Positions 16,145 to 19,077 of a stretch of 64,000 nucleotides of DNA are shown piece by piece (position 1 is the stretch's first letter; each line of letters begins with the position of its first letter). The translations under genes and the position numbers were made by a program. Below the pieces are notes generated by a model. That model worked only from the letters and a program-made list of their open reading frames with translations. It was not told where the DNA came from and made no database searches. The stretch is from Hemileia vastatrix (lineage: Eukaryota; Basidiomycota; Pucciniomycetes; Pucciniales; Zaghouaniaceae), in assembly GCA_030280995.1 (NCBI GenBank), contig JASXTE010000011.1, positions 24,887,817 to 24,951,816 on the forward strand, given 5' to 3'.

Positions 16145-16785
16145 ATGTTTAACCTTCTTCCCAAATCTGCCTCTGAAATGGGCTCTTGCCAATACTGCAT
16201 TGACAATAATTTAATCTGCACCATGACACCACCTGTCCATCCATACAGAACATCCTGCGATGTCTGCCAATCCAGAAAGAAGACCTGCCACAGACCTGGT
16301 CCACTTTCTTCCACAACAGATTCACCTCCACCTTAACCTGGTCCTTCTTCTGCCAGCACCAAAAGATCTAGGCCATCCATCCTGATACCCAGATTAATGA
16401 AAAAGCTCCACCCTTCCCAGAAGAGTGCCACAACCCATAAAACAACTAGTTCCCCCATCCCTGGTCCATCTGATGGTAAAGAACATTCTTTTCTTCCTTA
16501 AACTTTAAAACTGATAACTTCTCAGTTCCTCCCTCTTCTGATAGTGATGATAACAATGTAGGATCCATTGCACCACCAACACCAACGCACTTGCTCACTA
16601 TCAAGGCCAAGCTCCAACAACACACATCTCAACAGAAACAACTTCTGCTTCACTACTTCCAATCCACTCCTGCTAGAGATCCACAGGACATTGAGAACAG
16701 AAGACACCTCATTCACCAGTTCAAGGCTAATTCTGAACACTTCATTTCATCTCTTGATTCCCTCTGTAATTCCACTAGTACTTGA
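16145..16785 (+). pseudogene. Antisense gene 1 of gypsy-A: Zn2Cys6-like cysteine-cluster protein
   Basis: This gene runs opposite to pol, just inside the 3' LTR. From Met 16145 the protein has C15-x2-C18-x6-C25-x12-C38-x2-C41-x6-C48 followed by basic and Ser/Pro-rich sequence (SRKKTCHRPGP, TKRSRPSILIPRL). An intron 16476-16525 (GTAAAG...TTCTCAG) joins this to an acidic then helical segment with QQHTSQQKQLLLHYFQST and DIENRRHLIHQFKANSE, ending TGA at 16783. Gypsy-C has the same gene at 59965-60568 with the same intron position, which argues for selection on the protein. One TAA at 16334 breaks exon 1; gypsy-C has CAA there, so it is a C-to-T lesion. The cysteine spacing fits the fungal Zn2Cys6 DNA-binding fold, though the basic residues lie in the second half. 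DNA binding is inferred. Confidence 0.75.
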
Positions 16786-16846
16786 GTTTGATTCAGAAAA
16801 GAAAAATTGACCACACCCTCTATAGGATGTAACCACAAACAACCCT

Positions 16847-17358
16847 CAGTTTTAAGTCTTGGGGGACTCAAAAACCCTCAGTTTAAAGTCTTGGGGGACT
16901 CAAAAACCTAAATCATAAACCCAGAACCAGAGATAAACCACATTAAGACAAAGAGAAAAAACTAACATTCTGGGGTAATTGTAAATAGAGCTGCCAGCCC
17001 ATCAATTACCCCCAAACTTGCCTTTGCTAAATTTGGAGGCTCCCCCTGTGGATACCCTCCACCAATCTTTCAAAACCAACTCCAACAACAAAACCCTTTT
17101 TCCTCAGTATATAGTCTTGGGGGACTTACAACCCTCATTTTAAAGTCTTGGGGGACTAAACCAACAACAATCCTCAGTTTAAAGTCTTGGGGGACTAACA
17201 CAATGTTCAGTTTAAAGTCTTGATGGACTAACTTGATAAAATCTTGAGACCAGCCAGTTTAAAGTCTTGGAGGACTAACAGAAATCAGATTTCAGTTTAA
17301 AGTCTTGATGGACTGATCTTGATACCATAGATTTTTCAGTTTAGAGTCTTGATGGACT
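16847..17358 (+). repeat. Cluster of nine 22-bp motifs between the two antisense genes
   Basis: The motif CAGTTTAAAGTCTTGGGGG-ACT recurs with small changes at about 16847, 16879, 17105, 17136, 17175, 17208, 17255, 17293 and 17337, with irregular spacing and no long shared flanks. Two further copies (CAGTTTAAAGTCATAG...) lie at 19804 and 20068. Gypsy-C carries about nine copies in the inverse orientation between 58590 and 59850. Irregular iteration with a conserved core looks like a protein-binding array rather than a simple tandem repeat. Confidence 0.8.
16972..17012. promoter_or_regulatory. Stem-loop module, copy 1 in gypsy-A
   Basis: GGGGTAATTG at 16972 and CAATTACCCC at 17003 form a perfect 10-bp inverted repeat around a loop containing GAGCTGCCAGCCCAT. 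The same module with its downstream flank recurs at 19897 and 20160, and three times in gypsy-C. Confidence 0.65.
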
Positions 17359-17509
17359 GACAGAATTTTGCATAAAATAGACGCAGCCAATTCCATGCAG
17401 AACACCTCTACAGCCAACCTTCTGAGCTTCCACCTTCACTTAATCATCTACCCATCACTGACAAAAATCTCCTCCTATCCCTTTTCATCATCTTTTCTCA
17501 CCACAGATC

Positions 17510-19077
17510 ATGGCTGGATCTCCTGATGTTAACCCTTCTACTCTCCCTTGCTTCACTGCTCCCAAGGACTATGCCTGCAAACAGTGCATCCAAAAGTGCA
17601 GACCTTGCACATTCACTCTTCCAACTCCTGAAGCCAAATTCTACAACAGGGCTTGTGATTCTTGCTATTCCAAAAAGAAAAGATGTGACAGAGATGCCAA
17701 CTACCCTATTCCTCCGCCTTCTCCTTCTCACAAATACATCTCCAGATCCCCTACCAGATCCCCAGAGCTTGGTCCTTCCTCTTCCTCTCTATCTTCTGCT
17801 CTTCCAGAAGATCCAGAAGCTCAGCTTCCCGCATTCTTCCCAAAAGACCAGCCTTAGCTTCCCAAGAAACTGCTTTTATCTCCGCCAAATTAGCTCCAAA
17901 AGCTTCAAGATCAACTCCCAGGCTTCTAGACCGCGTCCAGGCAGCCCGGCCGACGTTGGGAGGCCCGCCTGCCTCACCAAACAGTGAAAATCAGGGCCAA
18001 AACCTCCAAAAACGGCCAGAAAACAGCCAAATTCATCCAGTCAACAACAACAACTCAACCCAACTACCTCCTACTGCTCCCAGAGCAATGCAATCCACCC
18101 TTCCAAAGTCCAAAAGCACCAAAATTTCCCAGATTTCTAAGAGACCTGCCAGAGAGCCCCAAGAAGAAACCAGAACACCACACACTGCACCCAAACAACA
18201 ACTTTGTCCCCAACTAAGACAAAGAAACTACACCTCTCCTCTGTCAGCCAACTATTCTTCTGAAAGTTCCATTCCTTCAAAAGCTCCATCCAGAAGAGAT
18301 CAATCCGCTTCCAAATCACCCTCTCCTGCTCCATATTATAACAACCCTGGTACTCCATCAGCAGTACCTCATCCAACTGAATCAAACAGAAATATTAACA
18401 ACAGCAACAGCAGACCTGCTGCTCCAACTAGGCCCCAGGAACATCAGTCTCCTATTTCACCTTCTCAAAACCTTTCAGAGGAAGACCAAGAGAATCCATA
18501 TCTTTCCCTGATTGATCCACCTACTATCACCATTCCAAAATCTTCAGAAGTCCAAATCCCGGCCGCTTACAAATTTGATGAGCTTCCAATCTGTAAGTAC
18601 CACATTAATTCATCTAATTTCTTCAACAAAAATAATTACTGATCCAATTCTTCTTGTCTAGTTGGCACCCCTCCTCCTGAATCTATTATTGGAGTTGGCC
18701 AACCTCTTGAAACTTCTTTGACCCTGGATTATGGAGACATGAAGAAACACCTAAGCACCATGTGTTCCAACATGCTAAAAGCCTTTTCCCTCCATGGACC
18801 TTTGAATGACTTTGAAAAATCCCTGAGAAAGCGCCTACTGGACGACCACTGGAAAATGTCTAGGATCATTAAACACACCCTCCAGCACTCCATTCCTGCC
18901 TCTTCTTCTTCCTCCTCTGAACTTCCCTCTAATCCAATTCCTGATCATTACAATCCCTATCATCTCTCCAGCAGGATGCACTTCAAAGAACACAGTTCTA
19001 CCGACAATCCCAACAAAAAACAAAAACGTCATCACAATCTGGACCAGCCTCCAGAAGCTTCATCATCCAGACAATGA
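17510..19077 (+). CDS. Antisense gene 2 of gypsy-A: Zn2Cys6-like N-terminus, Pro/Ser-rich body
   Basis: Also antisense to pol. From Met 17510 the N-terminus has C23-x2-C26-x6-C33-x15-C49-x2-C52-x6-C59, with a basic stretch YSKKKRCDRD at the last cysteines. A second open block (about 17956-18592) is Pro/Ser/Asn-rich and joins by an intron (GTAAGT at 18593, CTAG at 18660) to a final exon 18662-19077 containing GDMKKHLSTMCSNMLKAF and LRKRLLDDHWKMSRIIKHTL, a helical segment, then a basic PNKKQKRHH near the end. The first and second blocks lie in different frames. Either an intron or a lesion near 17860-17955 separates them; a GC-rich piece resembling part of the LTR sits there. A CATAAAATAG element at about 17369 and a CT-rich leader precede the start, as expected of a promoter. 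Function is inferred only. Confidence 0.6.

What the first reader, a model, noticed from the sequence alone, without database searches (positions are those of the whole stretch)
16145..19077. gypsy-A encodes two antisense, intron-containing Zn2Cys6-like proteins
Seen: two plus-strand genes sit between the minus-strand integrase and the 3' LTR. Each begins with six cysteines spaced C-x2-C-x6-C-x12/15-C-x2-C-x6-C, followed by basic residues and Pro/Ser-rich sequence; each has a plausible intron. Established: this spacing fits the fungal Zn2Cys6 transcription-factor fold, and some retroviruses use antisense genes as regulators (HTLV-1 HBZ). Inference: the element makes its own DNA-binding regulator from its antisense strand. 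I know of no named family with this architecture.
Basis: partly seen in the sequence, partly recalled or inferred. Interest (0 to 1): 0.87.

Follow-up and report, generated by a model that had tools for sequence, protein, structure and literature searches.

The report
Rust retrotransposon antisense zinc-cluster genes
Jumping genes of a rust-like fungus carry, on their opposite strand, small genes whose proteins resemble a back-to-front version of a classic fungal DNA-binding zinc domain, which suggests that the elements encode their own regulators, although most copies seen here are damaged and nothing has been tested in the laboratory.

Summary
Element A (minus-strand Ty3/gypsy; LTRs 15005-16096, 25710-26801) has two plus-strand genes between pol and the 3' LTR, both starting with CX2CX6CX12/15CX2CX6C. 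Both are broken in this copy: gene 1 has an in-frame stop, and gene 2's two parts lie in different frames. Gene 1 recurs in a second insertion (A'): dN/dS is 0.38 in its own frame (0 of 2000 permutations as low), with no gaps in 591 coding bases.

[quoted passage not shown] a decayed fourth copy lies beside A'. (2) The domain looks like a Gal4-type Zn2Cys6 cluster with its halves swapped: 7 of 7 PDB sequence hits are Zn2Cys6 factors, and the alignments shown pair the halves crosswise.

Antisense accessory genes at this place are known (plant Grande, RIRE2, Retand; fungal Boty brtn). The zinc-cluster product, swapped order and sharing between gypsy lineages appear new. Expression, zinc binding and DNA targets are untested.

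The parts
15005..16096 (-). 3' LTR of element A (TG...CA); the plus-strand gene 1 starts 49 bases beyond its inner end
   Evidence: 90.1% identical to 25710-26801; ends read
16097..16106 (-). polypurine tract GGAGGGAGGA beside the 3' LTR of element A
16145..16475 (+). antisense gene 1, exon 1 (six-cysteine motif 16187-16288); in-frame stop at 16334-16336 in this copy
   Evidence: dN/dS 0.30 against A'
16476..16525 (+). possible gene 1 intron (GTAAAG...ACTGAT...TCTCAG), 50 nt
   Evidence: 57% identity to A' against 76-77% in the exons
16526..16785 (+). gene 1 exon 2, stop codon included
   Evidence: dN/dS 0.54
17510..17857 (+). antisense gene 2, N-terminal part with six-cysteine motif 17576-17686; frame closes at 17855-17857
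   Evidence: zinc domain resembles gene 1's (0 of 2000 shuffles as high)
17689..18592 (+). gene 2 C-terminal frame, exon 1 part (Pro/Ser/Gln-rich), in another register than 17510-17857; contains an LTR-like stretch at about 17882-18061
   Evidence: 317 open codons (17689-18642): reached by 0 of 1000 simulations of the whole antisense region, and by 0 and 3 of 500 with gene 2's own composition (order 1 and 2); LTR similarity
18593..18661 (+). possible gene 2 intron (GTAAGT...ACTGAT...TCTAG), 69 nt
18662..19077 (+). gene 2 exon 2
20341..21633 (-). integrase frame of element A
   Evidence: Integrase_H2C2 and rve; relatives with rust names 50-61% identical
21634..25685 (-). RNase H/RT and protease frames of element A, interrupted by stops
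25710..26801 (-). 5' LTR of element A, followed by primer-binding-site-like TGGCACCCAACATGGGG
55187..61718 (+). A', a second insertion of family A in opposite orientation; no match to element A's pol proteins inside it; LTRs 82% identical
59929..60568 (-). gene 1 relic of A', antisense, same place beside its 3' LTR, several stops, two cysteines lost
45690..54143 (-). element B, chromovirus (gag, RT, integrase, chromodomain; pol frames interrupted), LTRs 97.2% identical, CTATG on both sides
46570..47028 (+). antisense frame of element B, 152 codons open as it stands: six-cysteine motif 46651-46752, acidic end
47099..47153 (+). possible intron downstream of the B frame (GTAAGT...ACTGAT...TTTAG), 55 nt; the frame that is open up to it is not the one of 46570-47028, so whether the gene ends at 47028 or once went on is unsure
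61719..62001 (-). decayed fourth antisense six-cysteine gene, cut by A'; by nesting it probably belongs to the element whose integrase is at 44319-45531 (+)
15607..15643 (.). CGG/CCG cluster in the LTR of element A, candidate binding site
   Evidence: 6 triplets in 70 bases, 1 of 500 simulations as dense; the two B LTRs hold 1 and 3 triplets in all and no cluster

Best explanation
At least two Ty3/gypsy lineages in this fungus carry accessory genes on the strand opposite to gag-pol, between pol and the 3' LTR. The products have an N-terminal zinc cluster built like Gal4's Zn2Cys6 module but with its two halves in reverse order (the DNA-reading, basic half second). In element A a low-complexity linker and a C-terminal exon behind a short intron follow. 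Shown here: position, strand, motif, recurrence in two element families and two insertions of A, purifying selection on gene 1, and the swapped-half match to Zn2Cys6 factors. Inferred: the genes are transcribed by RNA polymerase II on the antisense strand, gene 1 from within the 3' LTR and gene 2 from the repeat-rich DNA before it. They are spliced. The proteins return to the nucleus and bind CGG-type sites, possibly the CGG/CCG cluster in the element's own LTR, to tune sense transcription. The introns would survive because the RNA that is copied back into DNA is the other strand.
For: Three full motifs in 64 kb, all antisense between pol and 3' LTR. Gene 1 recurs beside the LTR in A', dN/dS 0.38 with 0 of 2000 permutations as low, other five frames 0.64-2.99, codon-position chi-square p 3.6e-6, no gaps in 591 bases. 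Control frames: LTR 0.58-1.26 (6 frames), downstream 0.86-1.00 (3 frames); the cysteine region alone 0.24. Zinc domains of genes 1 and 2 are alike, 0 of 2000 shuffles as high. Profile against PDB sequences: 7 of 7 hits at E up to 10 are Zn2Cys6 factors, best E 0.012, halves crossed in the three alignments shown. Gene 1 alone: 2 of 2 hits are GAL4, crossed. Pfam Zn_clus pairs gene 1's first half with profile 18-35 and gene 2's and B's second half with profile 1-16 and 3-15. Score test over the three domains: swapped 67 (0 of 5000 shuffles as high) against same order -111. Foldseek: 14 of 15 and 8 of 10 chains are Zn2Cys6 factors. The place of Gal4 Lys18, which contacts CGG guanines (PMC5559640 passage), is Lys, Lys and Arg in gene 1, gene 2 and B by my reading.
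Against: No RNA data. Of the five antisense genes or relics in the window four are broken; only the 152-codon B frame is open as it stands. Each single match is weak: no Pfam hit above cut-off, no Foldseek hit at E 0.001 (best 0.64 and 2.0), models at pLDDT 53.6 and 63.3. The pseudo-symmetric fold cannot by itself tell the order of halves. GAL4 and LAC9 in the swap test were chosen because they were best hits, and the B domain alone is not significant there (p 0.12 and 0.05). Gene 1 is less similar between A and A' (75.5-77.3%) than the LTR (85.3%). Gene 2 and the B gene have no second copy here, so selection on them is untested. In the B region the sense strand has a longer open frame (202 codons) than the antisense strand (187). 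The B zinc domain resembles gene 1 (10 of 2000) but not gene 2 (414 of 2000). The B LTRs have no CGG/CCG cluster, and similar clusters occur elsewhere in the window. No homologue of the antisense proteins was found in 5.8 billion proteins, although relatives of the integrase with rust names are there.
Confidence: 0.6

Rival explanations
1. The antisense proteins act in integration, not transcription: a nuclear DNA-binding protein that escorts the pre-integration complex or picks target sites.
For: PMC7264820 suggests nuclear or accessory-factor roles for plant antisense ORF products. A DNA-binding domain fits either role.
Against: Nothing here distinguishes it. The candidate CGG/CCG cluster sits in the element A LTR, which would favour self-regulation, and element B already has a chromodomain.
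Confidence: 0.2
2. The genes are host zinc-cluster transcription factor genes captured by the elements, or by a common source, with no settled function.
For: Introns and the zinc cluster look host-like. Capture into two element families would explain sharing.
Against: The swapped order of halves is unlike the canonical domain. Gene 1 is in the same place in two A-family insertions and evolved under constraint.
Confidence: 0.15
3. The antisense RNA, not a protein, is what matters (double-stranded RNA or interference with sense transcription), and the reading frames are remnants.
For: Both element A genes are broken in this copy. PMC7264820 discusses this for plants.
Against: dN/dS 0.38 in gene 1's own frame only, absence of gaps in its exons, and the same cysteine spacing in two element lineages.
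Confidence: 0.1
4. Chance: open frames in C-rich DNA that happen to show cysteine spacing.
For: The antisense strand is poor in stops in places; single matches are weak; the B region has an even longer open frame on the sense strand.
Against: 0 of 40 simulated windows gave any motif against 3 observed; the 317-codon frame is reached in 0 of 1000 simulations of the region, though in 3 of 500 in one composition model of gene 2 alone; codon-level selection in gene 1.
Confidence: 0.03

Closest known systems
Antisense accessory ORFs (aORF-3R) of plant gypsy elements: Grande gene23, RIRE2, Retand (TRP28), PvRetro13
   Same: Antisense genes in a long region between pol and 3' LTR, present in many copies, some nuclear or predicted to bind DNA; about half of Retand elements carry tandem repeats there (PMC7264820 parts 1-2 of 3; PMC11963269 passages and Discussion). 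Element A also has short tandem repeats there.
   Different: No zinc cluster or intron is mentioned in what I saw (the words 'zinc' and 'intron' do not occur in the main text of PMC11963269). Those are plant elements; here a fungus, at least two lineages including a chromovirus, and genes with possible introns.
Boty / BcGypsy1 of Botrytis cinerea with the antisense gene brtn
   Same: A fungal gypsy element with an antisense additional gene (passages of PMC8365987 and its reference to Zhao 2011; PMC7264820 groups it with ORFs between pol and 3' LTR).
   Different: The brtn product was not compared here; I did not have its sequence. No zinc cluster is mentioned in the passages seen.
Fungal Zn2Cys6 (Gal4-type) DNA-binding domain, Pfam PF00172
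   Same: CX2CX6C twice; basic residues in one half at the place that contacts CGG in Gal4; sequence and fold hits are almost all to this family.
   Different: The halves are in reverse order, with a 12-15 residue link; scores stay under Pfam's cut-off.
HTLV-1 HBZ
   Same: Antisense gene with a promoter in the 3' LTR (PMC7264820) and a nuclear product (PMC11963269 passage).
   Different: HBZ's protein family is unrelated as far as I recall; no sequence comparison was made.

Membership tests
Zn2Cys6 binuclear cluster (PF00172) | six cysteines, CX2CX6C - linker - CX2CX6C | tested here: met
   spacings 2-6-12-2-6, 2-6-15-2-6, 2-6-12-2-6
Zn2Cys6 binuclear cluster (PF00172) | score above Pfam gathering cut-off (21 bits) | tested here: not met
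   18.9, 13.0, 10.6 bits
Zn2Cys6 binuclear cluster (PF00172) | basic DNA-reading half first, other half after it | tested here: not met
   order is reversed; not significant for B alone
Zn2Cys6 binuclear cluster (PF00172) | fold with one short helix after each CX2C | tested here: inconclusive
Zn2Cys6 binuclear cluster (PF00172) | binds two zinc ions, binds DNA | not testable with these tools
   needs protein
LTR-retrotransposon antisense accessory gene (aORF-3R) | antisense, between pol and 3' LTR | tested here: met
   elements A and B; A' has the gene antisense beside its 3' LTR but no pol was matched
LTR-retrotransposon antisense accessory gene (aORF-3R) | present in several copies and constrained as protein | tested here: met
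   gene 1 only, one pair of copies; untested for gene 2 and B
LTR-retrotransposon antisense accessory gene (aORF-3R) | antisense transcript | not testable with these tools
   no RNA data
Retand antisense protein with TRP28 (PF04195) | TRP28 domain | tested here: not met
   Pfam scans of the antisense frames at E up to 1 list no PF04195

The most novel reading that the evidence does not exclude
Rust gypsy elements of different lineages share a transposon-born family of DNA-binding proteins with a circularly permuted Gal4 zinc cluster, made from spliced antisense transcripts, as self-encoded transcription regulators. This would be a regulator class parallel to retroviral antisense proteins but built on the fungal transcription-factor fold.
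Probability: 0.4. Interest if true: 0.82.

Novelty: new variant of a known kind. Interest (0 to 1): 0.66.

Why it matters
What antisense genes of LTR retrotransposons do is an open question in plants and fungi. A recognisable DNA-binding domain makes the regulator hypothesis testable: zinc content, binding to the LTR, and splice junctions in RNA-seq. If the swapped Zn2Cys6 order is real, it also shows that the two halves of this pseudo-symmetric cluster can be joined the other way round, and it gives a motif with which unannotated transposon genes in rust genomes can be found. Introns on the strand that is not reverse-transcribed would be a neat sign of which strand is expressed.

Tried and rejected
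Protein search with the C-terminal part of gene 2 (388 aa, intron removed): 0 of 2118 candidates at E 0.001. Search with an alignment of the three zinc-domain proteins: 0 of 316 candidates at E 1. These searches need exact five-residue words, so absence is weak. The integrase control found 147 proteins (120 listed), with names from Puccinia striiformis, Austropuccinia psidii and others. One 83% match is named Xanthomonas, which I take for fungal contamination. Scans with the integrase and with the B antisense protein found no relatives in viral contigs, and with the integrase none in genome contigs. Single-sequence PDB searches with gene 2 and B gave nothing at E 10. The C-terminal exons are not detectably alike: gene 1 with gene 2 522, gene 1 with B 137, gene 2 with B 85 of 2000 shuffles as high. 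A second intron joining the two frames of gene 2 is possible on paper (22 GT-AG pairs from 2 donors, GTGACA and GTCCTT, none GTAAGT-like) but not convincing. A CGG/CCG cluster as a general binding site was rejected for B. Papers: the listings of ten searches showed no paper on zinc-cluster proteins encoded antisense in LTR elements or on a permuted zinc cluster (listed of found: 10 of 10, 12 6 of 6, 16 10 of 12, 35 15 of 23, 36 12 of 20, 65 15 of 32, 66 4 of 4, 79 10 of 95, 97 0, 98 0); I saw titles and starts of abstracts only, open-licence papers only, and not the unlisted ones.
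Full report
What is there. The window has 36.9% G+C. Its element A integrase is closest to proteins of unnamed records and of rust fungi (Puccinia striiformis, Austropuccinia psidii; those with rust names 50-61% identical), so the source is probably a rust-like fungus; the species is not identified. [quoted passage not shown] Between integrase (ending at 20341) and the 3' LTR lie 4.2 kb with two plus-strand genes.

Gene 1 starts at 16145, 49 bases from the LTR, has its six cysteines at 16187-16288, an in-frame stop at 16334-16336, a possible intron at 16476-16525 and ends at 16785. 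Gene 2 starts at 17510, has its motif at 17576-17686 and closes at 17857; a second frame, open 17689-18642, continues through a possible intron (18593-18661) to 19077. The two frames are in different registers, so this copy of gene 2 is broken or needs a second, unconvincing intron. Both introns are in phase 1 (from the coordinates). On the other strand of this region no open frame exceeds 96 codons.

More than chance. Six-frame scanning of the window found three CX2CX6C-X5-20-CX2CX6C motifs, and 0 in 40 order-1 Markov simulations. All three are antisense between pol and the 3' LTR. Two are genes 1 and 2. The third is in element B, a minus-strand chromovirus with gag, integrase and a chromodomain and RT, LTRs 45690-46462 and 53371-54143 at 97.2%, and CTATG on both sides. 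Its pol frames are also interrupted. Its antisense frame runs from 46570 to 47028 with the motif at 46651-46752 and an acidic stretch, and is open as it stands. Downstream lies a GTAAGT-ACTGAT-TTTAG intron-like stretch (47099-47153) with open frames on either side that are not in the register of 46570-47028, so the gene may end at 47028 or may once have been longer. In this region the sense strand has an open frame of 202 codons against 187 on the antisense strand, so frame length is no argument for B; the motif and position are. A fourth, decayed copy lies on the minus strand at 62001-61719, cut by insertion A'. By nesting it probably belongs to the element whose plus-strand integrase (52-57% identical to A's) is at 44319-45531.

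Belonging to the element, and selection. A' (55187-61718, opposite orientation) has no match to element A's pol proteins but keeps the LTR and gene 1 in the same order (15007-17229 against 61716-59453, 79%). Aligned over 591 coding bases without a gap, the two gene 1 copies differ at codon positions 1, 2 and 3 in 44, 27 and 69 of 197 sites each (p 3.6e-6). dN/dS is 0.38 over 191 of 197 codons (6 with stops or unusable skipped); 0 of 2000 permutations were as low (null mean 0.87); the other five frames give 0.64 to 2.99. Exon 1 gives 0.30, the cysteine region 0.24, exon 2 0.54; control frames in the LTR give 0.58-1.26 and downstream 0.86-1.00. The proposed intron is 57% identical against 76-77% in the exons. 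Against this reading: gene 1 as a whole is less similar than the LTR (85.3%), and the A' copy has several stops and has lost two cysteines, so both copies were dead for part of their history. One pair of copies is a thin basis. No test of this kind was possible for gene 2 or for B.

How it probably works. Shown: place, strand, motif, recurrence, constraint on gene 1. Inferred: antisense transcription from the 3' LTR (gene 1) and from the repeats before gene 2, splicing, nuclear return, binding to CGG-type sites. In Gal4, Lys18 contacts the CGG guanines (passage in PMC5559640); by the alignments that place is Lys, Lys and Arg in gene 1, gene 2 and B. The element A LTR has a dense CGG/CCG cluster (15607-15643). 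Of five LTR copies or pieces of this family, simulations were as dense in 1, 26, 196, 189 and 1 of 500; both B LTRs have no cluster, and other stretches of the window, gene 2 among them, are about as rich. So LTR binding is a lead for A only. The antisense introns would not be lost in retrotransposition because the RNA copied is the other strand (inference).

Comparison with the known. [quoted passage not shown] PMC11963269, passages and Discussion; PMC8365987 and PMC5987419, passages). Their function is unknown; nuclear and regulatory roles have been proposed. So the architecture is not new. A zinc-cluster product, in swapped order, in at least two gypsy lineages of one genome, with introns, did not appear in the listings of ten paper searches, which cover open-licence papers only and of which I saw titles and abstract starts. 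From memory, unchecked, Basidiomycota proteomes hold many unnamed proteins with similar paired CX2CX6C stretches; if so, many may be such transposon genes.

Verdict.

Noticed in passing
window 14118-15004 and 26188-27074: A partial LTR plus about 270 bases of flank is repeated, 96% identical, on both sides of element A. A crossover through the LTRs between a chromosome with and one without the element would give this; the LTR divergence then does not date the insertion.
   Followed up: partly
window 17882-18061: The middle of gene 2 is similar over about 180 bases to the G+C-rich core of the family's LTR: score 93 against a maximum of 37 in 200 simulations for one LTR copy; 48, 47 and 56 against maxima of 42, 39 and 45 for three others, and not above chance (38 against 48) for the fifth.
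   Followed up: partly
window 16836-17365 and 19800-20270: Repeated 32-33-base units (CAGTTTAAAGTCTTGGGGGACT-like) and longer repeats flank gene 2, reminiscent of the tandem repeats of plant Retand elements.
   Followed up: partly
window 20341-25685 and 16145-16785: CpG is strongly depleted in element A pol and gene 1 (observed/expected 0.08; LTRs 0.27-0.29, gene 2 0.25) but less so in element B (pol 0.68, LTR 0.85), as expected for an old methylated against a young element.
   Followed up: no
protein P0007: A protein named as from Xanthomonas sp. A2111 is 83% identical to this rust-type integrase over 67% of it: probably fungal contamination of a bacterial assembly. It was not found in genome contigs.
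   Followed up: partly
window 1-1600: Dense direct and inverted repeats with spacings of about 240-930 bases at the window edge.
   Followed up: no
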